A stretch of 37,425 nt of DNA, from assembly GCA_018065085.1 (NCBI GenBank), contig JAGHUA010000038.1, positions 1 through 37,425 on the forward strand. The letters are read 5' to 3'. Shown here piece by piece: positions 4,521 to 36,537 of the stretch; the stretch's first letter is position 1; every line of letters begins with the position of its first letter. The position numbers were made by a program, and so were the translations under genes. The notes beneath the pieces were generated by a model. That model was given only the letters and a program-made list of their open reading frames with translations, was not told the DNA's origin and ran no database searches. Source of the stretch: Candidatus Liminaster caballi (lineage in GTDB: Bacteria; Bacteroidota; Bacteroidia; Bacteroidales; UBA3663).

Positions 4521-7325
4521 ATGGCATCAGATGGCACACTAACCTTTGACACGTCCCTCAATACGGACGGGCTACAGAAGAGCACCAGCTCCCTGGGGGA
4601 CGTAGCCAAAAACGCGCTCGGCGTCTTCGCCGGCAACCTTATGACCAAGGCCACAGAGGCGGTCATCAACTTAGGCAAGGAAGCACTCAACTCGGGCATG
4701 AGCTTCGAGGCTTCAATGGCCAAAACAAAAACACTTTTCGGTGGAACGGACGCACAGTTCAAAGAACTCAACGACACGATCCTGCAGATCTCATCCTCCA
4801 CAGGACTGGCTGCAGATGGACTGGCTGAGGCTGCATACTCCGCAGAGTCGGCTGGTGTATCGACGGAAATGCTCGGCACAATGCTGGAGAACTCCGCGAA
4901 GCTGGCGTCGGCAGGTTTCACAGACGTAGACACAGCCCTATCAGCAACAGCCAAGACCATGAACGCCTACGGCATGGAAGGCGAAGAGGCGATGCTGAAG
5001 GTGCAGAAGGTCCTGATCCAGACACAGAACGATGGTATCACGACCGTAGGCGAGCTGGGTGCATCCCTGGCTCAGGTAACACCAACCGCGGCAGCGTTCG
5101 GCGTGTCCTTCGAGCAGGTGGGCGCTTCTCTTGCAGTTATGACTGCAGCAGGTACACCAACAGCTCAGGCCACCACACAGCTCAACAGCTTGATCGCTGA
5201 ACTGGGCAAGAACGGAACAGTCGCAGCAAAGAACCTCGAAAAAGCGGCCGAGGGTACAAAGTACGCGGGCATGTCATTCAATGAGATGATGGACTCCGGC
5301 GCGACTCTGGACGAAGTCCTCGGCATGATCAGCGCAGAAGCTGACAAGAGTGGCTTGTCGATGGTCGACATGTTCAGCTCTATCGAGGCCGGCAAGGCTG
5401 CCCTGAGTATCTTCTCCGAAGACGGTGAGACGTTCAGGAAAGACCTGGCAGACATGGCCACAGGCGCGGATGTAGTTGGCGAAGCATACGCCACAGTCAG
5501 CGACACGCTGGAATATAAAGCCGGAAAGATCAAGGCGTCGATGACCAACATCGCGACGTCACTGTTCTCAATGGCAGCGGGACCGCTTGCAGATGCAGCG
5601 GACGCAGCAGCCGACGCTCTCGGAGCGATCCAGGCAGGCTTCAACGAAAACGGACTCGCAGGCGTAGCGGACGCCATCATGGGCATGATGGACAAAGCTG
5701 CAGACGCGATCGCGAACTTCGACTGGTCTGGACTGGGTGACAAAATTGTCAACGGTATCAACAAATTTATAGAGGGAGATGGCACGGGGCAGTTCCTGTC
5801 CACAGCTGGCAAGGTGCTCAGCTCTGTGGCCAGTGGCATCGCGACACTGCTGCCGAAGATCCTGCCGGCCATCGTGAAGCTGGTCGCTTACATGATCACA
5901 AGCCTGTACCAGCACATCCCTGACTTCCTCGCAGCTGGAGGCAAGCTGCTCCTGGGCATCGCCAACGGTGTCATCCAGGCATTGCCGGCGCTGGTTGAGG
6001 GACTGAAAAACATATACGAAGCATGGAAAAATTGCTGGAGTGAGATCCTCACAGCCCTGGGAGACTGGTGCGGCAAGATCATCGACAAGATCGTAGACTG
6101 GGCCGGATCAATGCTGGAAAAAGCCAGCACGGGCATGAGCAACATGCTCACCGCTATCATCGACTGGGTGAAGCAGCTCCCTGGTAAAGTTTGGACCTGG
6201 CTGGTCAATACTGTCACGAAGCTCGTGCAGTGGCGCCAGAATATGATCAACACAGCCTCCGAGGCCATGAGCAACATGCTCAGCAAGGTCGTCGAGTGGG
6301 TGTCACAGCTACCTGGAAAAGTGTGGACGTGGCTCGTCAACACAGTGACCAAGCTGATCACCTGGGGCCAGAACATGGTCAGCAATGCAAGCACAGCAAT
6401 GAGCAACATGCTCACCAAGATCATCGAGTGGGTGTCACAGCTTCCGGACAAGGTCTGGACCTGGCTGGTGAATACAGTCACGAAGGTGGTCACATGGGGC
6501 CAGAATATGGTCTCCAACGCATCGACAGCCATGAGCAACATGCTCACGAAGATCATCGACTGGGTGAAGCAGATCCCGGACAAGGTCTGGACGTGGCTCG
6601 TCAATACAGCCAATAAGGTCGTGACATGGGGCACCAACATGGTGAGCAACGCCAGCACGGCCATGAGCAACATGATCAACAAGATCGTAGACTGGGCGAA
6701 GCAGATCCCGGACAAGGTCTGGACATACCTCAGCAACACCGCCGGCAAGGTGGTCACATGGGGCACAGATCTCGCCACAAAGGGAGCAGCTGCAGCCAAG
6801 GGACTCTTCGACGCTTGCGTCAACGGCATCAAGGACCTGCCTGAGAAGTTCAAGTCCATCGGCTCGGACATCGTGACAGGTATCTGGAACGGTATCAGCG
6901 GAGGCTGGGACTGGCTGAAGAACAAGGTCAAGGATCTCGCTGGCAGCTTGCTGGACGCAGCGAAGGAAAAGCTGGGCATCAACTCACCTTCGACAGAGTT
7001 CAGGGACGAGGTCGGCCACTGGCTGCCTCCTGGAATTTCTGAAGGCTTTGAGGATGCAACACCTGACGCGATCAAACAGATGGAAGAGCAGGCGGCCAAG
7101 ATGGTCGCAAGGATGCAGGGCGCAGTCAGCACCAACCTGGGAGGCTTTAACTTCACCATGGGCGGAGCTGCAGGACTCAGAGCACTCACATCTGCAGGCG
7201 CGGTCGTAAATGTGGACAACTCCTTCGAGCAGCACAACACCTACAACACGCCGGTGACATCGCCGAGCGAGGTGGCCAAGGCACAGCGCGAAGCGCTCAG
7301 AAAAATGGCGGGAGGTGTGAAATGA
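4521..7325 (+). CDS. Tape measure protein
   Basis: At 934 residues this is the longest gene, which is expected for the protein that sets tail length. It starts 15 nt after the Gp15 stop, with GGGAGGG at 4507-4513. The N-terminal ~300 residues are a phage_tail_MP-type region rich in Ala (GLAADGLAEAAYSAESAGVST). The middle has hydrophobic helices (residues 420-500, ITSLYQHIPDFLAAGGK). Five tandem 44-residue repeats follow (about residues 539-758). The C-terminal part carries the common tape-measure motif INSPSTEFRDEVGHWLPPGI. The reverse strand has long open frames here, but they are composition shadows. Confidence 0.93.
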   Translation: MASDGTLTFDTSLNTDGLQKSTSSLGDVAKNALGVFAGNLMTKATEAVINLGKEALNSGMSFEASMAKTKTLFGGTDAQFKELNDTILQISSSTGLAADGLAEAAYSAESAGVSTEMLGTMLENSAKLASAGFTDVDTALSATAKTMNAYGMEGEEAMLKVQKVLIQTQNDGITTVGELGASLAQVTPTAAAFGVSFEQVGASLAVMTAAGTPTAQATTQLNSLIAELGKNGTVAAKNLEKAAEGTKYAGMSFNEMMDSGATLDEVLGMISAEADKSGLSMVDMFSSIEAGKAALSIFSEDGETFRKDLADMATGADVVGEAYATVSDTLEYKAGKIKASMTNIATSLFSMAAGPLADAADAAADALGAIQAGFNENGLAGVADAIMGMMDKAADAIANFDWSGLGDKIVNGINKFIEGDGTGQFLSTAGKVLSSVASGIATLLPKILPAIVKLVAYMITSLYQHIPDFLAAGGKLLLGIANGVIQALPALVEGLKNIYEAWKNCWSEILTALGDWCGKIIDKIVDWAGSMLEKASTGMSNMLTAIIDWVKQLPGKVWTWLVNTVTKLVQWRQNMINTASEAMSNMLSKVVEWVSQLPGKVWTWLVNTVTKLITWGQNMVSNASTAMSNMLTKIIEWVSQLPDKVWTWLVNTVTKVVTWGQNMVSNASTAMSNMLTKIIDWVKQIPDKVWTWLVNTANKVVTWGTNMVSNASTAMSNMINKIVDWAKQIPDKVWTYLSNTAGKVVTWGTDLATKGAAAAKGLFDACVNGIKDLPEKFKSIGSDIVTGIWNGISGGWDWLKNKVKDLAGSLLDAAKEKLGINSPSTEFRDEVGHWLPPGISEGFEDATPDAIKQMEEQAAKMVARMQGAVSTNLGGFNFTMGGAAGLRALTSAGAVVNVDNSFEQHNTYNTPVTSPSEVAKAQREALRKMAGGVK
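6135..6794 (+). repeat. Five tandem 132-bp repeats in the tape measure gene
   Basis: Copies start at 6135, 6267, 6399, 6531 and 6663. Each encodes 44 residues beginning MSNM and containing WV.Q(L/I)P.KVWTWL, then W(G/R)(Q/T)(N/D) and a Ser/Ala end. The three middle copies are the most similar and the last is the most divergent. In-frame units in a tape measure gene can change tail length in fixed steps. Confidence 0.9.
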
Positions 7326-9354: not shown

Positions 9355-10341
9355 ATGGCTATAAGATACGGATATTTTGACTCCGAGATCGTAGGCGTGG
9401 ACGAGGAAGGCATGCCGATCTTTGACCGAGCTGAGACCTCTGAGCTCTTCGCTCTGTTCTTCTCCAAGCTCGTCACCAACGGAGTGCTGGCCAAGCCGGC
9501 GAACTGCTTCCAGGTGACTGCAGGAGACACAGGCCTGAGCATCAAGGTGGCGCCTGGCTTCGGTATGGTCAACGGGCACTTCGCCTATGACAACGCCGAA
9601 GAGATCCTACAGCTGGAGCCTGCACCTACAAGCTACAGCAGGATCGACCGCGTCGTGCTCCGATGCAATTATCTGGAGCGACTCTGCGAGATCATCGTCA
9701 AGACAGGCACACCTGCATCCACTCCGGCACCTCCGGAGCTTTTACAGCCTGCATCTGGTGACTACTATGAGCTGGGCCTTGCACTGATCACGATCAGCGC
9801 CAACCAGTCCGTGCTCACTCAGAGCCAGATCACAGACACAAGAGCCAACAGTTCCATCTGTGGCTACATCACCCAGCTGATCGACAGCATCGACACCTCG
9901 GTCTTCTTCGCTCAGTTTGAGCAGTTCTACAAGGAGTTCGTGGACAAGTCCAACGCAACATACGACGAGTTCCAGGATATGGCCAGCACAGCCTACGCAG
10001 GCTTCACGGCTGCCATTGACGACTACATCGAAGCCCTGGAAGCAAAAGGCGACAGCGACCTGGCTGACATCACGGCCAGCTTCAAAGAGTTCCAGCGAGT
10101 ACAGCAGAACGCCTTCAATGAGTGGTTTGCTGACATCAAGGGACAGCTCGACACCGACATCGCCGGACACCTGCAGAACGAGATCACAGAGCACGAGGAC
10201 AGACTGACACAGCTGGAGAGGATGCTCATCCAGAACGAGATCACGGCACCGATCCGCGCCGACGACGACAGTGCGACGACACTGCTCGCTGATGACGACG
10301 GCAACGTCCTGGTCGCAGACTGGAAGTATAAATACGCATAA
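9355..10341 (+). CDS. Tail fibre / baseplate upper protein
   Basis: A 328-residue protein starting 2 nt after the previous stop, with GGGAGG at 9340-9345. The N-terminal ~170 residues contain a beta domain (GFGMVNGHFAYDN, then IDRVVLRCNYLERLCEI) typical of phage baseplate or fibre proteins that attach to the tip. The rest is a long helical stretch (about residues 175-300) rich in Phe, Asp and Glu, which suggests a trimeric coiled stalk. It probably carries the diversified protein encoded next. Confidence 0.65.
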   Translation: MAIRYGYFDSEIVGVDEEGMPIFDRAETSELFALFFSKLVTNGVLAKPANCFQVTAGDTGLSIKVAPGFGMVNGHFAYDNAEEILQLEPAPTSYSRIDRVVLRCNYLERLCEIIVKTGTPASTPAPPELLQPASGDYYELGLALITISANQSVLTQSQITDTRANSSICGYITQLIDSIDTSVFFAQFEQFYKEFVDKSNATYDEFQDMASTAYAGFTAAIDDYIEALEAKGDSDLADITASFKEFQRVQQNAFNEWFADIKGQLDTDIAGHLQNEITEHEDRLTQLERMLIQNEITAPIRADDDSATTLLADDDGNVLVADWKYKYA

Positions 10342-10355
10342 CAAGGAGGATAATC

Positions 10356-11336
10356 ATGGGATCTATTAGTGTAGAAACCAAAAGGATCGACGAGCTCGCA
10401 AACGCCGAGGCAGTCGGATCCGAAAACGACTTGCTCCTGATCCGTCAGGCAGACGGTACAGGCACAAAAAACATCACAGTCGAAGCCTTCCGCAAGGCAA
10501 TGACTGGAGACCTCTCAGGTCTCGACACCGAGGAGAAGGCCAGCGTCGTGGCTGCCATCAATGAGATCCTCGGCATCGACAAAGAAAACGCCAAAGAGAT
10601 CGAGGACTTGAAGAACCTCTGCAATGTTCTCAACTACGACAATGCAGGACTTCACAACGCTCTCTACAGAGGCAAGTATCTCGGCGACAGCTTCACAGCT
10701 GAACAGTCTGCAGCTATCCGCTCCGGCAAGTTCACAGACCTCTGGGTAGGTGACTACTGGACCATCGGCGGCGTGAACTACCGCATCGCAGACTTCGACT
10801 ACTTCCTCAGATCCGGAGATACAGAGTGCACACAGCACCACGCTGTGATCGTTCCGGACACTGCACTCTATAACGCACAGATGAACGCCAGCAACGTGAC
10901 AACAGGCGGCTACACTGGCAGCGCTATGTACACAGCCAACCTCGCACAGGCCAAGAACACCATCAAGGCAGCCTTCGGCGCGTCTCATATTCTCGGCCAT
11001 AGAGAGTACTTGTGCAACGCTGTGGCAAACGGCAGACCATCAGGCGGCGCGTGGTTCGACTCTGACATTGAGCTCATGAGTGAGTCGATGGCATACGGCG
11101 GCAACTTCTTCGAGCCTACTTCAGACGGTTCGACAGTTCCTGCGAAGTACTCCGTCGCATGCAAGCAGCTCAACCTCTTCAGACACCGCCCTGACTTGAT
11201 CAGCAACCGTACAACCTACTGGTTGAGGAACGTCGTGAACACGTCGAGCTTCGCCTTTGTCGACTTCAACGGTAATGCGAGCTGCTACGGCGCTTCGGGC
11301 TCCTATGGCGTCCGCCCGGCTTTCCCGATCTATTGA
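10356..11336 (+). CDS. Tail fibre tip with DGR-diversified C-type-lectin-like end (VR1 target)
   Basis: A 326-residue protein with a strong binding site (AAGGAGGATA, 10343-10352). The first ~60 residues (KRIDELANAEAVGSENDLLL) resemble a fibre attachment domain. The C-terminal ~190 residues resemble the C-type-lectin-like domain of DGR target proteins (DUF6273-like): WVGDYWTIGGVNYRIADFD near the start, then YWLRNV, and the end GVRPAFPIY. The last 28 codons before the closing IY are the variable repeat VR1. Its place after the tail tip genes suggests it is the receptor-binding protein, so VR1 variation would change host range. Diversification is shown by TR alignment; receptor binding is inferred. 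Confidence 0.88.
   Translation: MGSISVETKRIDELANAEAVGSENDLLLIRQADGTGTKNITVEAFRKAMTGDLSGLDTEEKASVVAAINEILGIDKENAKEIEDLKNLCNVLNYDNAGLHNALYRGKYLGDSFTAEQSAAIRSGKFTDLWVGDYWTIGGVNYRIADFDYFLRSGDTECTQHHAVIVPDTALYNAQMNASNVTTGGYTGSAMYTANLAQAKNTIKAAFGASHILGHREYLCNAVANGRPSGGAWFDSDIELMSESMAYGGNFFEPTSDGSTVPAKYSVACKQLNLFRHRPDLISNRTTYWLRNVVNTSSFAFVDFNGNASCYGASGSYGVRPAFPIY
11242..11325 (+). repeat. DGR variable repeat VR1
   Basis: This 84-bp segment aligns without gaps to TR 11961-12044. There are 15 mismatches (TR positions 11967, 11975, 11976, 11981, 11984, 11985, 12000, 12003, 12005, 12008, 12017, 12018, 12023, 12039, 12044) and each is an A in TR. It encodes the end of the fibre protein in the same phase as TR, changing TR Asn codons to Ser, Phe, Asp, Tyr or Gly. 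Confidence 0.96.
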
Positions 11337-11349
11337 TCATAATTTAATC

Positions 11350-11369
11350 CCGGGGCCACCGTGCCCCGG
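11350..11369 (+). promoter_or_regulatory. GC hairpin after VR1, candidate DGR homing structure
   Basis: CCGGGGC (11350-11356) pairs perfectly with GCCCCGG (11363-11369) around a 6-nt loop, 13 nt after the stop codon. No T tract follows, so it is not a standard terminator. In the Bordetella phage DGR a short GC-rich hairpin/cruciform just past the variable repeat enhances target recognition. A matching hairpin follows VR2 at 25353. Confidence 0.75.
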
Positions 11370-11400
11370 TAATAACTAATCAAGGAGATACGGGAGCATT

Positions 11401-11928
11401 ATGTCAGATATAAAAGTCAGTGAACGCGCTGAGAGCAAGCTGAGGGCGCAGCATCACGCCTACTACATCAGGCGACTGATCACCGCGGAGCTCCTGGCCA
11501 GTTTTGGCCACAGCGAGAAAAAGCTGGAGGCTCACATCAAGAAGGTGACGGAGAAGATCAGCGACCCAGAGCAGAGAAGGGTGGAAGCTGCAGCGCTCAA
11601 AGAGCTGGAGGAAAATTTTGAGATGTGGTTCATCGAGAAGGAACGGGACAGGGTGCTGGAGTTCACCAGCGGGATCTCGGAACACCTCAGAGCCGCGAAC
11701 ACTATCTGGCCCACCTATATGTCAGAATTTGAAGAACGTCGCCTGGAGATGGATCGGGCGCTCGTGTGCTGCAATAAGCTCCAGGACGAGCTGCAGTACA
11801 TCGCCGAGACGCTTCCAGCTGACAAGAACAGATACATGGCGATAGTACTGGAGGTCGAGAAAGAGTTCGAGATGATCAAAGCACTCCGGCAGTCTGACAA
11901 CCGGTTCTTGAAACATCTGAAGAAATAA
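11401..11928 (+). CDS. Small helical protein in the Avd position of the DGR
   Basis: A 175-residue protein between VR1 and TR, exactly where the accessory variability determinant (Avd) lies in the order VR-avd-TR-RT. CAAGGAGATA precedes it. It looks entirely helical and highly charged (for example AESKLRAQHHAYYIRRLIT near the start and EKEFEMIKALRQ near the end), which fits a helical bundle, but it is longer and more acidic than the typical ~125-residue basic Avd, and I cannot match it to a named family. Avd proteins bind the reverse transcriptase and the TR RNA. The alternative is an unrelated DGR accessory protein or a tail gene product. Confidence 0.5.
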   Translation: MSDIKVSERAESKLRAQHHAYYIRRLITAELLASFGHSEKKLEAHIKKVTEKISDPEQRRVEAAALKELEENFEMWFIEKERDRVLEFTSGISEHLRAANTIWPTYMSEFEERRLEMDRALVCCNKLQDELQYIAETLPADKNRYMAIVLEVEKEFEMIKALRQSDNRFLKHLKK

Positions 11929-12177
11929 GCATGGGGCGGCCCTTGTTTATGGTGACGTCGCGTCGAACTTCGCCAATGTCAACAACAACGGTAATGCGAA
12001 CTACAACAGCGCTTCGAACTCCAATGGCGTCCGCCCGGATTTCACAACCGCACACAGCTGGACAGGTTTCCACCGTGCGGCAATGGGAAAGGAAGGGCCG
12101 TCCGTTCTGCTGCATAGCAGATAAATGTCAATCATGACGGAGCCGGTCAAGACCGATGCTCCTGCAGCGTGGTTTTT
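11929..12177 (+). ncRNA. DGR template RNA region (TR plus spacer)
   Basis: This is the non-coding stretch between the Avd-position gene and the reverse transcriptase start. In characterised DGRs the TR and its 3' flank are transcribed as an RNA that is template and primer for mutagenic cDNA synthesis. The 3' flank (12045-12177) contains short complementary pieces (GGTCAAGACC at 12146-12155 and nearby GC-rich blocks) that could fold. RNA ends cannot be set from sequence. Confidence 0.6.
11961..12044 (+). repeat. DGR template repeat TR
   Basis: The sequence is A-rich in AAC/AAT context (24 adenines in 84 bp). Read in the VR phase it would encode S-N-F-A-N-V-N-N-N-G-N-A-N-Y-N-S and so on to GVRPDF, the Asn-heavy signature of DGR templates. 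It lies in the 249-bp gap between the Avd-position gene and the reverse transcriptase. VR1 and VR2 both match it apart from substitutions at adenines. A 68-codon frame overlapping it is in another phase and is not considered a gene. Confidence 0.96.
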
Positions 12178-13443
12178 ATGAATGATTTTTACGACGCCAA
12201 CATCTTATACGATGCAGGCACCAAAGCGATGAACGGCAGCAAGTTCAAGAAGAGCACGCAGCTCTTCGAGATGAACCACCTGCTCAACACAGCCAAGATC
12301 CGGCGGGAGCTCATGGAGCACACCTATCGACCCGATCCTGGCCAGAAGTTCATCATAAAAGAGCGGGGCAAGACCCGCTACATCACAAGCAACACAATGA
12401 AGGACAAGACAGTGAACCACGTCCTCTGTGACAATGTTCTCACTCCATCCATCGAGCCCTACTTGATCTATGACAACGGGGCCTCACAAAAGGGCAAGGG
12501 CGTCAGCTTCCACAGGAAGCGCTTCGAGGCGCACCTGCATCAATACTACATGCAGAACCACACCAATGAGGGCTACATCCTCCTGGTGGACTTCTCTGGA
12601 TATTATGCAAACATACCGCACGACAAGTGCCGGGAGATCCTAACCTCATTTATGGATCGCGCTGAGCTGGATCCGGAGACAGTAGAGACGGCGAAGGAGA
12701 TCCTCGACAAGGTCTTCCAGAGCTTCGAGCTGGACGTCTCGCGCTTCTCTGATGAGGAAGTCGAGGCGATGATGCGCACCAAGATCGACCCGCTGATGAA
12801 CGTCGGCGCGGATCCGAAGCAGCTCACCGGCAAGAAGTTCCTGAGGAAGGGCGTCGACATCGGCAGCCAACCGTCCCAGAACATCGGCATCGCGTACCCG
12901 TACACGGTGGACAACTACGCGAAGATCGTGAGAGGCGTCCACGGCTACGGCCGCTACACCGACGACTTCTACGCTATCCACCAGAGCAAAGAGTTCCTGC
13001 ATGACCTACTGAGAGGGCTGACAGAGTCGGCCGAGGCTCTCGGGCTGATCATCAACCCGAAGAAGACCCGGATCTGCAAGCTGAGCCGCCCGTTCTCGCA
13101 TCTGCAGAGGAGCTACCAGCTGACCAGCACCGGAGCGGTGAAGATCAAGATCAGCTCCAAGGCAGTCACCAGAGAGCGGCGGAAGCTGAAAGCATACAAG
13201 AGACTGCTGGACGCTGGCCGGATGGAATACGAGGACATCGAGAACAGCTTCAAAGGCTGGCTCGGTGGTAACTGGAAGGTAATGACACACCAGCAAATTT
13301 ACAACTTGAACGCTCTATATGTGGAGCTGTTCGGAAGGAGTATCTCATGGAAGAAAAAACATTCAAAATTGTGCTGGCTGATGGCACATCCCTCGAAGGG
13401 CTGGGCCTCAACGGCAACAACTTCATCAGCTCCAAGAAGCTGA
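12178..13443 (+). CDS. DGR reverse transcriptase
   Basis: A 421-residue reverse transcriptase that makes error-prone cDNA from the TR RNA. Visible motifs include the palm motif LLVDFSGYYANIPH, the DGR-specific IGSQPSQNIGIAYPY (SQ where group II and retroviral enzymes have QG), and the catalytic YTDDFYAIH, followed by a thumb region rich in Lys and Arg. The ATG at 12178 is the first ATG; a GTG at 12169 is also in frame and neither has a strong binding site. The last ~32 codons overlap the next gene in another frame and look unlike protein (ending TATTSSAPRS), so the functional enzyme probably ends near YVELFGRS. Confidence 0.95.
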   Translation: MNDFYDANILYDAGTKAMNGSKFKKSTQLFEMNHLLNTAKIRRELMEHTYRPDPGQKFIIKERGKTRYITSNTMKDKTVNHVLCDNVLTPSIEPYLIYDNGASQKGKGVSFHRKRFEAHLHQYYMQNHTNEGYILLVDFSGYYANIPHDKCREILTSFMDRAELDPETVETAKEILDKVFQSFELDVSRFSDEEVEAMMRTKIDPLMNVGADPKQLTGKKFLRKGVDIGSQPSQNIGIAYPYTVDNYAKIVRGVHGYGRYTDDFYAIHQSKEFLHDLLRGLTESAEALGLIINPKKTRICKLSRPFSHLQRSYQLTSTGAVKIKISSKAVTRERRKLKAYKRLLDAGRMEYEDIENSFKGWLGGNWKVMTHQQIYNLNALYVELFGRSISWKKKHSKLCWLMAHPSKGWASTATTSSAPRS

Positions 13444-17712: not shown

Positions 17713-17741
17713 TTGACAATTATAAACGAAAAGTTTATCAT
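17713..17741 (+). promoter_or_regulatory. Rightward early promoter
   Basis: TTGACA (17713-17718) and TATCAT (17736-17741) are separated by 17 bp, a near-consensus sigma-A promoter. The operator at 17722-17738 covers the spacer and the -10 box, so repressor binding would block it. Transcription would lead into the gene at 17800 and the early region. Confidence 0.8.
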
Positions 17742-22939: not shown

Positions 22940-24916
22940 ATGAGCAAGATGTCAGTGGATATAGAAACATACTCATCCATTGACCTGTTGAAGTCTGGCG
23001 TCTACAGATACACCGAGGCGCCTGACTTCGACATCCTGCTGATCGGTTACAGTGTCGACGGTGGGCCTGTGCAGGTTATAGACTGCACGGCCCTCCACGA
23101 CAATTATGAGGAAGAGAAAAAGATGCTCGAGTTCCGGAAGCACTTATATGATCCGGACTGCATCAAGAAAGCCTTCAACGCTAACTTCGAGCGCACCTGT
23201 CTGGCCAAGTGGACCGGGCGGGAAATGCCACCGGAGCAATGGCGCTGCACCATGATCAAATGCCTGACGATGGGACTGCCTGGCAGCCTCGCAGACGCAG
23301 GCAAAGCTCTCGGCCTTCCAGAGGATAAACTGAAGGACCCGCAGGGCAAGGCACTGATCCAGTACTTCTCGAAGCCATGCAAGCCGACGAGAGTCAACGG
23401 GCAGCGCACCAGGAACTTGCCGGAGCATGATCCGGACAAGTGGAAGCTGTACATCGAATACAACCGGCAGGACGTAGTCACTGAGATGGAGATCGACTCA
23501 AAGCTATCAATGTATAAAACCACCGAGACAGAGCAGGAGCTCTGGAACCTCGACCAGACTATGAACGACCGAGGTGTCCGCATTGCTGTGGATATGGTGG
23601 ACAAAATTGTGGAATACGATGAGGTCAGGAAGGAGGAGCTCCAGCAGGAAGCTCAGGAGCTCACCGGACTGAGCAACCCGAACAGCCTGGCACAGCTGAA
23701 GACATGGCTGAACGACCAGGGCATGCCGATGACGTCAGTCACTAAGGACACCATCAGCGCAGCACTCTCGCTGCAATATATCCCGGACAACGTCCGCAGG
23801 ATGCTGGAGATCAGGACAGCACTCGGCAAGACATCGACGGCCAAGTACAGCACAATGCTCGGCGCGGTCTGCGATGATCACCGCCTTCGTGGGATCCTCC
23901 AGTTCTATGGCGCCAACAGATCAGGAAGATGGGCCGGCCGACTGGTACAGACGCACAACCTCGCAAGGAACTCGCTGGAGGATCTTGATCTGGCCAGAGA
24001 GCTGGCAGTCGAGGGAGATTTTGACACAATGCAGACGCTCTTCGGCGAGACGGCCTTCGTCTTTTCTGAGCTGGTCCGCACCGCCTTCATACCATCCGAG
24101 GGCTGCCGCTTCGTGGTGAGTGACTTCTCCGCGATCGAGGCGAGAGTGATCAGCTGGATCGCAGACGAAGAGTGGCGCCTGGAAGCGTTCAGAGCCGGCA
24201 AGGACATCTACTGCGAGACAGCCAGCCAGATGTACAAGGTGCCGGTCGTAAAACACGGAGAGAACGGAGAACTCAGACAGAAGGGCAAGGTCGCAGAGCT
24301 GGCCTGTGGTTATCAGGGCGGCGTCGGAGCGATGAAGCGCATGGACCGAGAGGGCTCGATCCCAGAGGAAGAGCTGCAGGCTGTAGTTGACAGCTGGAGA
24401 AATGCCAACCCGAAAGTCGTGAAGCTGTGGAGGCTGTGCGAGATCGCAGTCAGGACAGCCATCGAGGAACACCGCACCGTAAGGCTGCAGCATGGCCTCG
24501 AATTTTCTTATATCAACCACAACCTCTTCATCAAACTGCCAGGAGGCAGGAAGCTCTGCTACTGGGACACCAAGCTGAAGATGGACCCGCGCGATGGCCG
24601 GGAGCACATCGTCTACATGGGAGTAAACCAGGAGACGAAGCAGTGGGGAGAGACTGAGACATACGGCGGGAAGCTGGTCGAGAACATCGTCCAGGCAACC
24701 GCGAGGGACTGTCTGGCCGTAGCCATGACGAGAGTCAGCAACCTGGGCTACAAGATAGTCATGCACGTCCATGATGAAATGATCGTAGACGTGCCGGTGG
24801 AAGACACCAACGCGCTGGACGTGATCAACGCCTGCATGGCCGAGCCTATTGACTGGGCGCCTGGCCTACCTCTGAAGGGTGACGGCTACGAGACCACGTT
24901 CTACAAAAAAGACTAA
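22940..24916 (+). CDS. DNA polymerase, family A, with 3'-5' exonuclease
   Basis: A 658-residue polymerase. The exonuclease domain has DIETYSS at residues 7-13, then FNANFERTCL and YNRQDVVTEMEI. The polymerase domain has motif A near residue 393 (SDFSAIEARVISW), the finger motif B region near 450 (KVAELACGYQGG), and motif C near 609 (HVHDEMIVDVP). It lacks the 5' nuclease domain of cellular Pol I, as is normal for phage enzymes. It lies 3 nt after the SSB gene and just before the VR2 gene. Confidence 0.95.
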   Translation: MSKMSVDIETYSSIDLLKSGVYRYTEAPDFDILLIGYSVDGGPVQVIDCTALHDNYEEEKKMLEFRKHLYDPDCIKKAFNANFERTCLAKWTGREMPPEQWRCTMIKCLTMGLPGSLADAGKALGLPEDKLKDPQGKALIQYFSKPCKPTRVNGQRTRNLPEHDPDKWKLYIEYNRQDVVTEMEIDSKLSMYKTTETEQELWNLDQTMNDRGVRIAVDMVDKIVEYDEVRKEELQQEAQELTGLSNPNSLAQLKTWLNDQGMPMTSVTKDTISAALSLQYIPDNVRRMLEIRTALGKTSTAKYSTMLGAVCDDHRLRGILQFYGANRSGRWAGRLVQTHNLARNSLEDLDLARELAVEGDFDTMQTLFGETAFVFSELVRTAFIPSEGCRFVVSDFSAIEARVISWIADEEWRLEAFRAGKDIYCETASQMYKVPVVKHGENGELRQKGKVAELACGYQGGVGAMKRMDREGSIPEEELQAVVDSWRNANPKVVKLWRLCEIAVRTAIEEHRTVRLQHGLEFSYINHNLFIKLPGGRKLCYWDTKLKMDPRDGREHIVYMGVNQETKQWGETETYGGKLVENIVQATARDCLAVAMTRVSNLGYKIVMHVHDEMIVDVPVEDTNALDVINACMAEPIDWAPGLPLKGDGYETTFYKKD

Positions 24917-24928
24917 GGAGAGACACAC

Positions 24929-25345
24929 ATGAAAGTATGGAGAATTAAAAAGAAGGAAGTCGAGGTCCCGGAGATCGGGGACAAGATAAAGGTGAAATTT
25001 ATGGAGCAGAAGCAGACAGCGACCTGCATGGGACTGACTGCAGAAGGAAAGCCGGTATTTCTTTTTGACAACATCCTCATGGATCTGCCACACGATGAGG
25101 CTGAGGCGTTCTGTGAGGAGCGTGGCTGGTTCCTTCCTACAAAGCAGAACCTCGAGGAGTGGCCACTCATGCAGGACTATCACTACAGAATAGCAGGACG
25201 CAAAGAGTCAAAGCTCTCAGACTGGTGGTGGCTGGCTGATCCGGCAGGCGCGTCGACCTTCGCCTTTGTCAACGACCACGGTAATGCGAGCTACTACGGC
25301 GCTTCGCTCTCCTTTGGCGTCCGCCCGGCTTTCCTTATTATCTAA
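24929..25345 (+). CDS. Second DGR target: small C-type-lectin-like protein (VR2)
   Basis: A 138-residue protein with AAGGAGAG (24915-24922) before the ATG. It resembles a minimal DUF6273/C-type-lectin-like domain: the strand pair PEIGDKIKVKFM, then KPVFLFDNILMDLP, then WWWLADP, and the end GNASYYGASLSFGVRPAF. The last ~30 codons are VR2, in the same phase as TR. There is no signal peptide, membrane segment or fibre domain. It lies between the polymerase and primase genes, so it is probably expressed early and acts in the cytoplasm. Its ligand is unknown; a diversified binder of a host or rival factor is one possibility. Confidence 0.88.
   Translation: MKVWRIKKKEVEVPEIGDKIKVKFMEQKQTATCMGLTAEGKPVFLFDNILMDLPHDEAEAFCEERGWFLPTKQNLEEWPLMQDYHYRIAGRKESKLSDWWWLADPAGASTFAFVNDHGNASYYGASLSFGVRPAFLII
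25251..25334 (+). repeat. DGR variable repeat VR2, remote
   Basis: These 84 bp align without gaps to TR 11961-12044. There are 14 mismatches (TR 11967, 11975, 11976, 11984, 11987, 12000, 12005, 12008, 12017, 12018, 12023, 12024, 12039, 12044), all at TR adenines. It is 13.2 kb from TR and encodes the end of a replication-module gene. Confidence 0.96.
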
Positions 25346-25352
25346 TAAATCC

Positions 25353-25371
25353 CGGGGGCCTCGTGCCCCCG
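25353..25371 (+). promoter_or_regulatory. GC hairpin after VR2, candidate DGR homing structure
   Basis: CGGGGGC (25353-25359) pairs with GCCCCCG (25365-25371) around a 5-nt loop, 7 nt after the stop codon. It has no T tract and parallels the hairpin after VR1 in stem length, GC content and position. Confidence 0.75.
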
Positions 25372-25404: not shown

Positions 25405-25590
25405 ATGCCACTGACGCAGGCACTCAAAACAAAACTGAATAAGATGAAGGCCTCCGGAACCTGGAGAGCGGACTGCTGCATCTGTGGCAGACCGTTGGAT
25501 CCGGAGGATGACAAGACTGAATACTGCAAGACAAAACGCGGGACGGAGAACTTCTTCCACCGTGACTGCATGAGGAGGTGGGCAGAATGA
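25405..25590 (+). CDS. 61-residue probable zinc-binding protein
   Basis: AGGAGGAC (25391-25398) precedes the ATG. Residues 24-56 hold CCICGRP, then YCK and HRDC, enough Cys and His for one zinc site. It overlaps the primase-helicase start by 4 nt (ATGA) and probably works with it. No family is recognised. Confidence 0.75.
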   Translation: MPLTQALKTKLNKMKASGTWRADCCICGRPLDPEDDKTEYCKTKRGTENFFHRDCMRRWAE

Positions 25591-28658: not shown

Positions 28659-29967
28659 TCTGGTGGTCAGCAAAAAGAGCGTCGGCCTGTTCTTAGATAT
28701 GGGACTGGGCAAGACCGTCATCACACTGACCGCAGTCAACGAGCTGATCTACGACCGCTTCGAGGTCTCCAGGGTGCTGGTGATCGCACCGAAGCGAGTG
28801 GCGGAGGACACCTGGACGCGTGAGCATAAGAAGTGGGACCACCTTCGAGAGCTTAGGATCTCCAAGGTCCTGGGCACAGCGGCGCAGAGGCTCAGAGCAC
28901 TGGAGCAGGATGCTGACGTCTACGTCATCGGCCGCGATAATGTGGTCTGGCTGGTGGATCATTACAGCAAGAAGAAGCACTGGCCCTTCGACATGATCGT
29001 GATCGACGAGCTGTCGAGCTTCAAGAACCCACAGGCCAAACGCTTCCGGGCGCTACGCAAGACCCTGGGCGTGACTCAGCGAGTCGTAGGCCTGACAGGA
29101 ACACCAAGCCCCAACGGCCTCATGGATCTGTGGGCGCAGGTGTATCTGCTGGACAGGGGCGAGCGCTTAGGCCAGACGATCGGAGCGTACCGCGAGAAGT
29201 ACTTCAGAGCGGGAGCCCGCAACGGCTACGTGGTCTATAAATGGGAGCCATTAAAGGGAGCCAAGGAAAAGATCGAGGAAAAGATCAGCGACATCTGTGT
29301 GAGCATGAGCGCGGCGGACTACTTAACACTACCGAAGAGGATCGACAACGTGATCCCGGTGCGACTCAGCGAGTCAGAGATGAAGCTGTACAAGCAGATG
29401 GAAGCAGACCAGCTCCTGCAGATAGACGACACAGACGTGGTGGCCTTAAATGCGGCCGCAGTCATGACCAAGCTCCTGCAGATAGCCAACGGCAGCGTCT
29501 ACAGTATGGACGGCACGGTCGTCAATATCCACGACGCAAAGCTGGAAGCACTCCAGGAGATCATCGACACAACAGACAGCCCGGTGCTGGTCTTCTACAG
29601 CTACAAGCACGACCTCACCAAGATCATGAACGCCATCCCGAGCGCTCGCATACTGAACGGAGCGAACGACATCAAGGACTGGAACGACGGCAAGGTGCAG
29701 GTGCTCCTGGCACATCCGGCCAGCGTAGGCTACGGCCTCAACCTTCAGGAAGGCGGCCACACTATCGTCTGGTACGGACTCACCTGGAGCCTGGAGCTCT
29801 ACCAGCAGGCCAACGCCAGACTATACAGACAGGGGCAGGACAAGCCGGTCATCATCCACCACCTCATAGCAGAGGGAACGGTGGACGAGCAGGCCATGAA
29901 CGCCCTGCAGCATAAAGACACAAGCCAGGCAGCACTGCTGGCAGCATTAAAGGAGAGAAGGGCATGA
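28618..29967 (+). CDS. SNF2-family DEAD/DEAH helicase
   Basis: A 449-residue protein starting at GTG 28618, after GAGGAGGTGG (28603-28612). The motifs are Q-type YQQRATDLVV, motif I DMGLGKTVITL (residues ~26-36), motif II DELSSFKN (~130), motif III LTGTPSPNGLMD (~158), and the C-terminal RecA lobe with VLVFYSYKHDL and motif VI QANARLYRQGQ. It probably remodels replication or recombination intermediates along with the VRR-NUC protein. Confidence 0.93.
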   Translation: MQYTPHSYQQRATDLVVSKKSVGLFLDMGLGKTVITLTAVNELIYDRFEVSRVLVIAPKRVAEDTWTREHKKWDHLRELRISKVLGTAAQRLRALEQDADVYVIGRDNVVWLVDHYSKKKHWPFDMIVIDELSSFKNPQAKRFRALRKTLGVTQRVVGLTGTPSPNGLMDLWAQVYLLDRGERLGQTIGAYREKYFRAGARNGYVVYKWEPLKGAKEKIEEKISDICVSMSAADYLTLPKRIDNVIPVRLSESEMKLYKQMEADQLLQIDDTDVVALNAAAVMTKLLQIANGSVYSMDGTVVNIHDAKLEALQEIIDTTDSPVLVFYSYKHDLTKIMNAIPSARILNGANDIKDWNDGKVQVLLAHPASVGYGLNLQEGGHTIVWYGLTWSLELYQQANARLYRQGQDKPVIIHHLIAEGTVDEQAMNALQHKDTSQAALLAALKERRA

Positions 29968-30266
29968 ACTACCAAGAGGAAAACATCAAGAGCGGCAAAC
30001 ACTACGGCATTGAGAGCCAGCTGAACCAGACACAGGAGGAAGCGGCTGAACTCATCCAGGCGATCAATAAGTACCGACGGGCGCGAGGAGTCGGACAGGA
30101 GACAGATCTCGGCACTGCAGAGAGCAGGGCCAACCTCGTGGAGGAGATCGTTGACGTCAGCATAATGATCGAGCAGCTCTGCGACCTTCTTCTGATCACG
30201 CAGTCAGAGTTCGACCGTGTGTATGAGACGAAGGTGGCCAGAACAATGAGGAGAAGACTGGGATGA
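29964..30266 (+). CDS. MazG-like NTP pyrophosphohydrolase
   Basis: A 100-residue helical protein overlapping the helicase stop (ATGA). The motif pair QTQEEAAELIQAINKYRR and NLVEEIVDVSIMIEQL has the EExxE and ExxD layout of all-alpha NTP-PPases. It would hydrolyse (d)NTPs or alarmone-type nucleotides to adjust the nucleotide pool during infection. Confidence 0.85.
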   Translation: MNYQEENIKSGKHYGIESQLNQTQEEAAELIQAINKYRRARGVGQETDLGTAESRANLVEEIVDVSIMIEQLCDLLLITQSEFDRVYETKVARTMRRRLG

Positions 30267-30650: not shown

Positions 30651-31174
30651 GGGACGCGCTGAAAGCGGCAGAGATCGCCATGCAGAAGGAAATGGAGCGA
30701 CAGGTGGACATGATATACAGCGCCATGGCCATCGCCTTCCACAGGTACTGGGGCTGGGGTCCGCTTAGGATCCGCAGACTCATGGACAAAACACAGGACG
30801 CCTGGGACGAGTGTGGAGAGACCAACGAAGTCAGCATGCTGCAGATGCTGGAGGACGAGACCGGCATCGAGATCAGGAACCACGAGCTCGGAAAGAGCTG
30901 GCACGATCTGGCATACTTGAACGCCAAGATCGACATGGGCAGGATGAACAGAGCCCAGTGGATCTACATGAGACAGAGGCAGAAGGACTGGATCGGCCCC
31001 CAGGTCATCGCGTGCGTGCTCCTGGCACTATATCGCAAGTACGGCTTCGGCCATCAGCGCTGTCTGAGAATACTCGGCCAGATCGAAGAGATCGAGGCCG
31101 AGTTCGGATATGATCCGAAGAAATTGAAGGCGGCCTGCTTCGAGGAAGCAAGGGTCGAACTGAAGGGGAGGTGA
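30647..31174 (+). CDS. Helical protein with internal duplication, unknown function
   Basis: A 175-residue protein; ATG 30647 overlaps the DUF4406 stop and GGTGGAGG lies upstream. Two segments resemble each other: residues ~27-57 (AIAFHRYWGWGPLRIRRLMD) and ~122-152 (LLALYRKYGFGHQRCLRILG), each with an aromatic-Gly-aromatic-Gly turn and a following helix. It sits before the late regulator, so it may take part in the switch to late expression. No family is recognised. Confidence 0.75.
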   Translation: MRDALKAAEIAMQKEMERQVDMIYSAMAIAFHRYWGWGPLRIRRLMDKTQDAWDECGETNEVSMLQMLEDETGIEIRNHELGKSWHDLAYLNAKIDMGRMNRAQWIYMRQRQKDWIGPQVIACVLLALYRKYGFGHQRCLRILGQIEEIEAEFGYDPKKLKAACFEEARVELKGR

Positions 31175-31179
31175 GACAT

Positions 31180-31617
31180 GTGGAGGAACTAAACGAAGCC
31201 TACAACTATCTGATGCAGATCAGGAAGGCCGAGAGCCAGATCAAGCGCCTGGAAATGAAGGCCAGAGAGCTGAGGAGCTGCCTGCTGCCTGGTGCGATCA
31301 GGTACGACAAGGACAGAGTCCAGTCAACTCCAGAGGACAAGCTCCTGGAGATCATGGCAGAGGTGGACGAGTGCGAGAGGAAGGCAGAGGCCAAAAGAGT
31401 CGAGAAGGCCAGACTGGTCGAAGAGATCACCGGCACCATCGAGATGCTGGAGGACGAGAACGAGAAGACAGTCCTCACGACGTTCTTCGTGGCCAGGGAG
31501 TCAATGAACCAGGCGGCCGAGTACATCAGCTACAGCATCAGGCGGGCGTACTATTTTAGAAAACAGGGACTGCTGCACCTGGGTGAGATACTAAAGTCGG
31601 CAAACATTGCAAAATGA
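31180..31617 (+). CDS. Sigma-like late transcription regulator (DUF1492/ArpU-like)
   Basis: A 145-residue protein. GTG 31180 is preferred to GTG 31171, because GGGGAGG (31164-31170) abuts 31171 but is 9 nt from 31180. The first 85 residues are coiled coil (KAESQIKRLEMKARELRS). The last ~50 residues read like a sigma region 4 helix-turn-helix (LTTFFVARESMNQAAEYISY, then AYYFRKQGLLHLGEIL). Such proteins lie just upstream of terminase genes and activate late transcription. Confidence 0.7.
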   Translation: MEELNEAYNYLMQIRKAESQIKRLEMKARELRSCLLPGAIRYDKDRVQSTPEDKLLEIMAEVDECERKAEAKRVEKARLVEEITGTIEMLEDENEKTVLTTFFVARESMNQAAEYISYSIRRAYYFRKQGLLHLGEILKSANIAK

Positions 31618-31636
31618 TATGTGATATTCTTATATG
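31607..31636 (+). promoter_or_regulatory. Possible late promoter just before the boundary terminator
   Basis: TTGCAA (31607-31612) and TATATG (31631-31636) are 18 bp apart. Both matches are partial. If real, the terminator at 31649 would be in its leader, so late expression would need read-through or an activator such as the sigma-like protein upstream. Confidence 0.3.
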
Positions 31637-31648
31637 GTGGAAAACATG

Positions 31649-31682
31649 AAAGCAGGGAGCTCGTGACGAGGCCCTGCTTTTT
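31649..31682 (+). terminator. Intrinsic terminator at the early/late boundary
   Basis: AAAGCAGGG (31649-31657) pairs with CCCTGCTTT (31672-31680), with an inner CTCG/CGAG stem (31660-31670) and five Ts at 31678-31682. It separates the early region from the terminase genes. Confidence 0.88.
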
Positions 31683-31716
31683 CTATACCTAACAAACAAC
31701 CGGAGGTAAGAACAAG

Positions 31717-32430
31717 GTGCCAAAAGCAAGGAACGCTAAGGCCGACGAGGCTCTGGCGCTTTATAAGCAGGGGCACAAGTTGGTCGACATTGCAAAGCAG
31801 CTCGACCTTCCGGAGGGAACCGTCCGGAGGTGGAAGTGCACATACAAGTGGGACGGCGAGAAAAAGGCGAACGCTCGCAAAGGGGAGACGAACGCTCGCA
31901 ACAAAGGCGGAGCGCCTAAAGGGAACAAGAACGCCGTCGGCCACGGAGCCCCAAAGGGCAACCAGAACGCCAAGCGCTGGGGCATGCTCAGCAGATACAT
32001 CCCACAGGAGACCATGGAGATCCTGGGGATCACTGCAGAGACCTCACCGCTCGACCTTCTCTGGGATCAGATACAGATCGCCTACGCGGCCATCATCAGA
32101 GCCCAGCAGATCAGCTTCGTCAAAGACCAGGACGACAAGACAGTCGAAAAGGTCGAGGACAGAAGCGGAGCCGAGTCCTGGGGCGAAAAATGGGAAGTAC
32201 AGCAGGCATGGGACAAGCAGGCCAGCTTCATGAAAGCACAGGCCCGAGCCCAGTCAGAGCTTCGCAGCATGATCAAGCAGTACGATGAGATGCTGCACAA
32301 GGACTGGGATGCAGCCACAGAGGAGCAGAAGGCTCGCCTGCAGGTGCTACAGTCTAAACTGAGCGACGGAACCGGTCAGGAGGCTCCTGTCGTTATTATC
32401 AATGACACGCAAAGAAGTCCGGATCAGTGA
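31717..32430 (+). CDS. terS: Terminase small subunit
   Basis: A 237-residue protein starting at GTG with CGGAGGTAAG (31701-31710) upstream. The N-terminal helix-turn-helix is clear (EALALYKQGHKLVDIAKQLD then PEGTVRRWK), followed by the Lys/Asn/Gly-rich linker GAPKGNKNAVGHGAPKGNQN typical of PBSX-type small subunits, and a helical C-terminus for oligomerisation. It recognises phage DNA for packaging. The pac/cos site cannot be placed. Confidence 0.9.
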   Translation: MPKARNAKADEALALYKQGHKLVDIAKQLDLPEGTVRRWKCTYKWDGEKKANARKGETNARNKGGAPKGNKNAVGHGAPKGNQNAKRWGMLSRYIPQETMEILGITAETSPLDLLWDQIQIAYAAIIRAQQISFVKDQDDKTVEKVEDRSGAESWGEKWEVQQAWDKQASFMKAQARAQSELRSMIKQYDEMLHKDWDAATEEQKARLQVLQSKLSDGTGQEAPVVIINDTQRSPDQ

Positions 32431-35199: not shown

Positions 35200-36537
35200 A
35201 TGGACGAAAGCTATCACAGCCTGCTCGCTGCAGGCGTAGAAAAGAAATACAGAGACCTGGAGGTCAGCATCATGGAGGACGTGATGCGACGCATCCAGAA
35301 GGCGGGCAAGATCACCTCAACAGCTGACTGGCAGATCCAGCGCCTGATCATCCTGGGCAATTCCACGGAAGACATCAGGGCCCTGGTCTCCAAGGCTGTG
35401 GATGGCAATGAGGAGCTGGTCCGTCAGCTCTATGAGGAAGTCATCAAAAACGAATACACCAGCCAGAAGGAAATATATGAAGCAGCTGGCAAGGAGTTCA
35501 TCCCGTACGAGCAGAACGCAGAGCTCCAGCAGATCACCGAGGCGCTGATCAGGCAGTCCACGGAGGAGCTCTACAATATAACGAAGTCCACCGGCTTCAT
35601 GGTGGACATGGGCAACGGCAAGACAGTCTTCACACCACTGGCCGACATCTACAACGGCTACCTGGACGACGCGATCATCGGCATGGCCAACGGCGCCTAC
35701 GACTACAACACGCTGGTCAGAAAAACGACCAACATGATGACAAGGTCAGGGCTCCGCACGGATCACATCTTCAGGGACGGCGGCAGTGACTACGGCATCG
35801 ACTACGCAAGCGGCTGGCATAACCGCATAGACGTGGCCGTCAGGCGTGCACTTCTGACCGGCTTCGGACAGCTGGCCGGACAAGTCACCGACATGAACGC
35901 CCAGAAGCTCAACACCAACTTCTTCGAGGTCTCAGCTCATGGGGCTGCAAGACCTTCGCACGCATCCTGGCAGGGACGCGTCTGGTCCAAGCAGCAGCTG
36001 ACTGAGGTCTGCGGTCTCGGATCCGGCGGAGGACTCTGCGGATGGAACTGCAGGCACACGTACTACCCGTTCATCAAGGGCATCAGCCAGAGGAACTACA
36101 CGGACCAGTACCTGGAAGACCTTGCAGCCAGAGAAGCAACGCCGAAGAAGTGGAAGGGCAAAGAGTTCAACGCCTACGAGGCAACACAGAAGCAGAGGCA
36201 GATGGAGACGGCCATGAGAGCAAGGCGCGAACAGGTGCAGCTTCTCAGGAAGGCCGGAGCTGATCACGATGACATCGTCGAGGCACAGTGCAGATACCAG
36301 GCACAGCTCGAAGAGTATCGAAACTTCAGCAGATACATGGGCCTCGAAGAACAGACCGAGAGGATCTACACCGGAAGAACTCCGGGCAGGATCTCACCGA
36401 GTCCGAAAGTGTACGCCGAGTGGAAGGCGGAAAAGATAAACCAGGCGAAGGAACGCCAAGAAGAAAAACGCCGCGCCGACATGAGACGCGCGGAGAGGGA
36501 GGCAAAACGTGGTACAAGTTCATCTGGATCAGACTAA
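35200..36537 (+). CDS. Minor capsid protein (phage_min_cap2)
   Basis: A 445-residue protein starting 3 nt after the portal stop. The core motifs are GAYDYNTLVRKTTNMMTRSG, YASGWHNRIDVAVRRALLTG and the conserved VSAHGAARPSHASWQGRVW then CGWNCRHTYYPF, diagnostic for phage_min_cap2. It lies inside the capsid near the portal and is probably ejected or structural. The C-terminal 110 residues are a charged coiled coil. The end overlaps the Prp-like gene by 29 nt. Confidence 0.9.
   Translation: MDESYHSLLAAGVEKKYRDLEVSIMEDVMRRIQKAGKITSTADWQIQRLIILGNSTEDIRALVSKAVDGNEELVRQLYEEVIKNEYTSQKEIYEAAGKEFIPYEQNAELQQITEALIRQSTEELYNITKSTGFMVDMGNGKTVFTPLADIYNGYLDDAIIGMANGAYDYNTLVRKTTNMMTRSGLRTDHIFRDGGSDYGIDYASGWHNRIDVAVRRALLTGFGQLAGQVTDMNAQKLNTNFFEVSAHGAARPSHASWQGRVWSKQQLTEVCGLGSGGGLCGWNCRHTYYPFIKGISQRNYTDQYLEDLAAREATPKKWKGKEFNAYEATQKQRQMETAMRARREQVQLLRKAGADHDDIVEAQCRYQAQLEEYRNFSRYMGLEEQTERIYTGRTPGRISPSPKVYAEWKAEKINQAKERQEEKRRADMRRAEREAKRGTSSSGSD

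What the first reader, a model, noticed from the sequence alone, without database searches (positions are those of the whole stretch)
24929..25345. DGR-diversified protein inside the replication module
The VR2 target lies between the DNA polymerase and primase-helicase genes, with its own ribosome binding site and no signal, membrane segment or fibre domain. Most phage DGRs act on receptor-binding proteins. A small C-type-lectin-like protein made early in the cytoplasm and diversified by the same template suggests variable binding to an intracellular target, such as a host defence protein, a rival phage factor or a replication partner. The last point is inference.
Basis: partly seen in the sequence, partly recalled or inferred. 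Interest (0 to 1): 0.93.

Follow-up and report, generated by a model that had tools for sequence, protein, structure and literature searches.

The report
Hypermutated protein in phage replication module
A bacterial virus carries a targeted mutation machine whose template matches not only a likely tail protein but also a small protein encoded between its DNA-copying genes, and that small protein likely works inside the infected cell, possibly against host defences, rather than on the virus surface.

Summary
ORF 24929-25345 (138 aa) lies between PolA and a VapE-type primase-helicase and ends in a second variable repeat of the phage's DGR: 14 of 24 template adenines changed, 0 of 60 other bases. 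Natural variants differ mainly at those codons. The slot is filled in Acutalibacter phage Fontainebleau and in 11 of 43 polA-related IMG/VR records. Of 22 records of 30 kb or more, 5 of 5 with the window's RT type have the slot gene and 0 of 17 others do. The closest PolA relative, L005, is a clean empty site with an unrelated one-target DGR. In relatives the target is fused to a MazG-like pyrophosphohydrolase (L006) or to DUF3310 (nd12). Second targets of five other published phage types also lie among early or DNA-metabolism genes. I read it as an early cytoplasmic variable binder, perhaps counter-defence. Precedents exist (Quimbyvirus, Shimadzu, Lelie, nd4, nd12), so it is a new variant of a known kind. 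Expression time, virion content and partner are untested.

The parts
24929..25345 (+). second DGR target gene, 138 codons (slot gene)
   Evidence: homologues
25251..25334 (+). VR2, variable repeat
25353..25371 (+). G+C hairpin after VR2, 7-bp stem, z -2.84
   Evidence: role in homing recalled from other DGRs, not tested
24917..24922 (+). ribosome-binding site GGAGAG of the slot gene
   Evidence: read from the sequence
11961..12044 (+). TR, template repeat
12169..13443 (+). reverse transcriptase of the DGR
   Evidence: RVT_1 1.7e-12, phrog_1423 2.6e-59
11401..11928 (+). 175-aa ORF between VR1 and TR, candidate accessory (Avd-like) protein by position only
   Evidence: no convincing family match; an ORF at the same place in Fontainebleau
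10356..11336 (+). first DGR target gene, 326 aa, likely tail protein
   Evidence: position after 9355-10341 (phrog_1220, phrog_25620); own tail matches weak
11242..11325 (+). VR1
11350..11369 (+). G+C hairpin after VR1, 7-bp stem, z -2.67
22940..24916 (+). family A DNA polymerase
25405..25590 (+). 61-aa cysteine-rich ORF; follows polA directly in L005
25578..28037 (+). VapE-type primase-helicase
17713..17741 (+). promoter-like site (11 of 12) ahead of the rightward genes, candidate early promoter
   Evidence: number of sites not above shuffles

Best explanation
The gene at 24929-25345 is a second target of this phage's diversity-generating retroelement, set between its DNA polymerase and primase-helicase genes, and it likely makes an early cytoplasmic protein whose hypermutated C-terminal face is predicted to bind a changing partner inside the infected cell, such as a host defence factor. 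Shown by sequence: one TR matches two VRs, one in a likely tail gene and one in this gene, with changes at template adenines only and a G+C hairpin after each VR. Inferred: the TR transcript is copied with errors at adenines and the cDNA homes into VR2 guided by its 3' end and hairpin; the gene is co-transcribed with polA and vapE early in infection; the protein keeps a fixed core and varies about a dozen residues; variants that bind the present intracellular partner are selected. In relatives the same domain is joined to nucleotide-metabolism domains (MazG-like NTP pyrophosphohydrolase, DUF3310), which fits a role in the cytoplasm and would let the variable domain bring an enzyme to its partner. 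The partner is unknown; host anti-phage defence is my first guess (about 0.4), replication or nucleotide-metabolism proteins next.
For: Adenine-only TR-VR2 changes, 14 of 24 A and 0 of 60 others; in L006, L009, L020, L029, L036 15/26, 16/23, 12/23, 18/24, 15/24 A and 0 of 61-65 others. P0001-P0004: 41 of 56 residue comparisons at adenine codons differ, 17 of 496 elsewhere. Conserved slot after polA: Fontainebleau, 11 of 43 records. Among 22 records of 30 kb or more, slot gene in 5 of 5 with the window-type RT and 0 of 17 others. Clean empty site in L005. Purifying selection before VR in relatives, dN/dS 0.05-0.30. Fusion to an NTP pyrophosphohydrolase domain in L006, P0017, P0018, P0020 and to DUF3310 in nd12, P0050, P0083. 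Second targets outside the structural genes in Shimadzu, Lelie, Toutatis, nd4, nd12, Dulem virus 34.
Against: No expression, proteomic or binding data. Position in an early module does not forbid packaging. The window's own 138-aa form has no fused domain; the enzyme fusions are in relatives 31-44% identical or more distant. Many nd12-type relatives have a degraded DUF3310 part or none (44 and 47 of 120 listed). The fold is predicted only. The co-occurrence test ignores kinship of the records. Promoter-like sites are not above chance.
Confidence: 0.62

Rival explanations
1. It is a virion decoration or receptor-binding protein that merely sits in the replication module, and its variation serves adsorption, as proposed for the nd4 and nd12 tgt2 proteins.
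For: Phage DGR targets are mostly annotated as tail proteins (PMC8144416 section 9); the authors of nd4/nd12 suppose an Mtd-like role for tgt2 (PMC10743442 section 9); weak PHROG match to a Hoc-like head decoration family, E 0.063, limited to the VR part.
Against: Position between polA and helicase, conserved in relatives; no attachment or fibre domain in 138 residues; relatives fused to nucleotide-metabolism domains.
Confidence: 0.2
2. It is an intracellular protein that binds a phage or host replication or nucleotide-metabolism partner, with no part in defence; variation tunes it to host species.
For: Neighbours polA and vapE; fusions to NTP pyrophosphohydrolase and DUF3310 domains.
Against: Replication proteins evolve slowly, so hypermutation is hard to justify; no partner known.
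Confidence: 0.15
3. It is a by-product: VR2 is a spare landing site for the retroelement and the protein has no selected function.
For: VR2 carries the same 3' end and a hairpin like VR1's; the gene is absent from a close relative.
Against: Purifying selection before VR in relatives; the slot is conserved.
Confidence: 0.03

Closest known systems
Acutalibacter phage Fontainebleau (ON453893), WAK78934.1
   Same: DGR with one TR and two VRs; second target directly after DNA polymerase I and before the helicase; hairpins after both VRs
   Different: 189 aa against 138; RT 58.7% identical; annotated only as hypothetical protein
Roseburia phage Shimadzu orf43; Faecalibacterium phages Lelie orf58 and FP_Toutatis 11505-12152
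   Same: small DUF6273-type DGR target among early or DNA-metabolism genes
   Different: other phages, other neighbours, RT 26-32% identical to the window's; reported as target of unknown function (PMC11792537)
Phages nd4 and nd12, target2 (PMC10743442)
   Same: second DGR target with a 3' VR; in nd4 next to DNA pol III alpha, in nd12 fused to DUF3310
   Different: proposed by the authors as Mtd-like receptor binders; first target is a tentaclin
Quimbyvirus second DGR target (PMC8008677)
   Same: non-structural DGR target; authors infer a part in phage-host conflict
   Different: in a defence-related island on the opposite strand, not in a polymerase-helicase slot; not compared by sequence here
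Bordetella phage BPP-1 Mtd
   Same: DGR-diversified C-type-lectin-fold protein (from the papers read)
   Different: tail tip, receptor binding, N-terminal attachment domains

Membership tests
Diversity-generating retroelement target | variable repeat differing from a template repeat at template adenines | tested here: met
   14 of 24 A, 0 of 60 non-A
Diversity-generating retroelement target | reverse transcriptase gene next to TR | tested here: met
   12169-13443, RVT_1 and phrog_1423; IGSQPSQ and YTDD are read from the sequence, their DGR meaning is recalled
Diversity-generating retroelement target | diversity of VR in natural relatives with a fixed remainder | tested here: met
   12 of 14 adenine-codon columns vary, 12 of 124 others
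Diversity-generating retroelement target | G+C hairpin after VR and none after TR | tested here: met
   z -2.84 and -2.67 after VR2 and VR1, -0.30 after TR
Diversity-generating retroelement target | present mutagenic homing activity | not testable with these tools
   needs reads or a culture
Pfam DUF6273 (PF19789) | score over the gathering cut-off | tested here: not met
   138-aa protein 21.6 vs 23.5 bits; L006 24.1 and L009 23.7 pass, L020 and Fontainebleau do not; P0001 and P0004 carry the domain in precomputed annotation
C-type lectin fold | structural match | tested here: inconclusive
Phage receptor-binding or virion protein | presence in the particle | not testable with these tools
   no proteomics at hand
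Phage receptor-binding or virion protein | gene in the structural module | tested here: not met
   between polA and vapE; same in Fontainebleau
Counter-defence protein | binds or blocks a host defence component | not tested
   no binding data; PADLOC, a library of defence proteins, gave no match, which does not bear on it

The most novel reading that the evidence does not exclude
Many temperate phages run a two-armed DGR: one arm varies the tail for the cell surface, the other varies a small cytoplasmic binder made with the replication proteins and sometimes fused to nucleotide-metabolism enzymes, to meet changing intracellular defences. This would be a phage-side hypermutated repertoire against host immunity.
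Probability: 0.35. Interest if true: 0.93.

Novelty: new variant of a known kind. Interest (0 to 1): 0.74.

Why it matters
DGR targets in phages are mostly annotated as tail proteins (PMC8144416, section 9). A hypermutated gene inside the replication operon, gained and lost with its DGR and joined to nucleotide-metabolism domains in relatives, would mean that selection for fast protein change also acts inside the cell. It makes the question 'what do intracellular DGR targets bind?' testable in an induced prophage of a gnotobiotic consortium (Fontainebleau in Acutalibacter muris, PMC10197239), and it casts doubt on the receptor-binding role proposed for the nd4 and nd12 second targets.

Tried and rejected
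An earlier count said that L005 has no RT. That was wrong: (PF00078) found another RT type there and a separate one-target DGR; the report uses the corrected reading. The motif scan missed slot genes in L007, L046 and the second copy in L010; some searches found them. The output was cut in the middle; one search gives the compact list.

Searches that led nowhere: back-translated patterns of the 138-aa protein gave 1 weak viral locus, alignment A2 none in viral or genome contigs; of 149 genomes (the window's own and relatives) only the window's own matched; phrog_21980 in 393 genomes of the order gave 0, but the 14 control genomes were silent too and the window's own genome did not match at that threshold, so it proves nothing. 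Rfam 0 matches. NCBIfam 0 for three proteins. PADLOC 0 for the 138-aa protein and five others, RT models only for the RT. PDB sequence search with the L006 N-terminal part gave one chance match, E 0.33. Pfam MazG matched that part under its cut-off (15.4 vs 22 bits), so the assignment rests on PHROGs. The first structure model, 14 sequences, pLDDT 63.8, was set aside for one with 53 sequences, pLDDT 75.3.

Considered and dropped: terminator for the hairpin after VR2 (T-rich tail only on the minus strand); chance repeat; assembly error for the pyrophosphohydrolase fusion (also in three protein clusters, though the L006 record has one in-frame stop in its RT). Fusions with Dam, S30AE or a doubled DUF3310 among the nd12-type hits (P0053, P0118, P0049; 2, 1 and 1 member sequences) look like chimaeric contigs and are not used. 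One search listed 120 of 866 hits; one search classed those 120 by simple letter patterns (12 intact DUF3310 start, 44 degraded, 47 of at most 225 aa; 17 in no class). MT835543 gave one target; MT835569 an ambiguous TR direction; MT835491 a second target with uninformative neighbours, not counted. The A-scan (66-base windows, at most 1 non-A mismatch) missed Fontainebleau VR1, which searches show; it covered 14 phages or records of those that and offered. The twelfth match (L043) is a 519-aa ORF elsewhere, not in the slot.

Against a simple picture: L008, L032, L036 and L046 differ pairwise at 14-20 of 24 VR positions that are A in the L036 TR and at 6-20 of 471 bases before VR, but also at 2-13 of 63 other VR positions; a different TR allele in L008 and L032, outside their contigs, may explain it but was not seen. 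Five slot-positive records have no RT; all are fragments of 7.1 to 29.8 kb. L016 has no sequence after polA.

Papers: PMC11792537 (passages, section 31), PMC10743442 (passages, section 9), PMC8008677 (passages), PMC8144416 (passages, section 9), PMC10197239 (passages). The Shimadzu paper was not held: nothing read; what is said of it comes from PMC11792537 and from the record itself. Searches for print on this slot or fusion; in the titles and abstract beginnings shown, none describes a DGR target between polymerase and helicase genes; most of the listed papers were not opened.

Full report
What is there. The window is a 37,425-base contig whose first and last 101 bases are identical, so it is probably a circular or permuted phage genome; it is contig 90 of a 2.94-Mb assembly. 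A DGR lies at 11242-13443: VR1 at the 3' end of a likely tail gene, a candidate accessory ORF, TR and RT. A third copy of the repeat, VR2, lies 13 kb away at the 3' end of ORF 24929-25345, between a family A DNA polymerase and a 61-aa ORF that is followed by a VapE-type primase-helicase.

Is it a real DGR target? Yes. TR and VR2 differ at 14 of 24 adenines and 0 of 60 other bases; the chance of that placement is 6e-10, or 2.5e-8 for the first 75 nt, without the two fixed changes at the 3' boundary. VR1 and VR2 differ from each other at 9 positions, all adenines in TR, so they were diversified separately. Both VRs are followed by a G+C hairpin with a 7-bp stem (z -2.84 and -2.67); the stretch after TR has none (z -0.30). 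A protein search found four close relatives, P0001-P0004, 86-93% identical: 41 of 56 residue comparisons at adenine codons differ against 17 of 496 elsewhere, and 12 of 14 adenine-codon columns vary against 12 of 124 others. So the gene is varied in nature while the rest of it stays nearly fixed.

The slot. I fetched 43 IMG/VR records by PolA similarity and read what follows polA. Eleven of 43 have a related target gene there: L006, L007, L008, L009, L010, L011, L020, L029, L032, L036, L046. L010 has a second copy cut by its contig end, and the L007 gene is cut by the end of its contig inside VR2. The window-type RT is in 6 of 43 records (a seventh hit, L028, is only 31-35% identical), and all 6 have the slot gene. 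Four records (L005, L017, L028, L042) have other RTs; each shows one VR next to its TR, and none has the slot gene. In the remaining 33 no RT was found; 5 of these have the slot gene, all fragments of 7.1 to 29.8 kb. Among the 22 records of at least 30 kb the slot gene is in 5 of 5 with the window-type RT and 0 of 17 others (Fisher 3.8e-5, not corrected for kinship). In five records TR could be compared with VR2: 12-18 adenine changes, no other change. Acutalibacter phage Fontainebleau shows the same arrangement.

The empty site. L005 has the most similar PolA (93%). There the PolA stop is followed at once by the ribosome-binding site and start of the 61-aa ORF; in the window the gene with its own ribosome-binding site, VR2 and hairpin lies between them. 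L005 carries another RT and a 538-aa target next to its TR. So a change of DGR type and the gain or loss of a gene 13 kb away go together in this pair, which suggests that the two are selected as one system. That last step is inference.

Fusions. In L006 the slot gene is one ORF of 278 codons: its first part matches phage NTP pyrophosphohydrolases (phrog_4856 2.3e-15, phrog_2245 2e-13; Pfam MazG only sub-threshold), the rest is the target domain with VR2. The same fusion is in P0017, P0018 and P0020. In another phage, nd12, the second target joins DUF3310 (2.5e-16) to DUF6273; PHROGs names the matching families nucleotide kinase (phrog_236, 3.8e-31). Clusters P0050 and P0083, standing for 10131 and 23439 sequences, have this fusion. 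Many relatives have a degraded DUF3310 part or none, which weakens the inference that the enzyme part is needed. The authors of nd12 noted the DUF3310-like motif and left its meaning open. Fusions to soluble nucleotide-metabolism domains are hard to reconcile with a tail tip.

Recurrence. In published phages scanned with one script, a second VR lies among early or DNA-metabolism genes in Shimadzu (orf43, between a DNA methyltransferase and Erf), Lelie (orf58, upstream of a replication initiation gene), nd4 (30965-31669, next to DNA pol III alpha), nd12 (31285-32178, ahead of a replication initiation gene if the record is circular) and Dulem virus 34 (35648-36313, between a methyltransferase and, four small genes on, a rep gene); Toutatis has such a VR too (11505-12152; 50,000 of 54,725 bases fetched, no other VR seen there). 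Lagaffe and CP11 were not examined; by the paper, Lagaffe has two Mtd-like targets. This is a chosen set, not a survey.

How it most likely works. One template feeds two proteins: a tail protein for the cell surface and an early cytoplasmic protein for something inside. Shown: repeats, adenine bias, natural variation, position, co-occurrence, fusions in relatives. Inferred: early expression, cytoplasmic location, binding function. Untested: the partner. A fast-changing partner would explain the hypermutation; host defence proteins fit best, and Quimbyvirus is a published parallel with the same inference (PMC8008677).

Novelty. Non-structural DGR targets in phages are on record (Quimbyvirus), and so are small second targets of unclear function (Shimadzu, Lelie, CP11, nd4, nd12). 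New here, as far as my searches go: the conserved polymerase-helicase slot, the empty site and the link to one DGR lineage, the pyrophosphohydrolase fusion, and the shared location of second targets in several phages. I file it as a new variant of a known kind.

Noticed in passing
L010:7186-7752 and 8246 to the contig end: Two slot-type target genes in a row after polA, with a 151-aa ORF between them; the second is cut by the contig end.
   Followed up: no
P0008, P0009, P0011, P0012, P0013: Short-form relatives that share nearly identical VR-like C-termini in two groups, as if no longer diversified by a DGR.
   Followed up: no
window 6120-6779: Tandem 132-base repeats in the 934-aa tape-measure-like ORF; Fontainebleau has 132-base repeats in its tape measure gene too.
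   Followed up: no
window 29964-30266: A separate MazG-like NTP pyrophosphohydrolase ORF (phrog_2245 2.4e-19) in the same module, not fused to the target.
   Followed up: partly
L064 (L005 record), L017, L028, L042: PolA-related phages carry at least one other DGR type with a single target next to its TR, so DGRs seem to be exchanged on a shared replication backbone.
   Followed up: partly
P0050, P0083: The nd12-type DUF3310-DUF6273 target stands for 10131 and 23439 member sequences, so it is very common in the protein collection.
   Followed up: no
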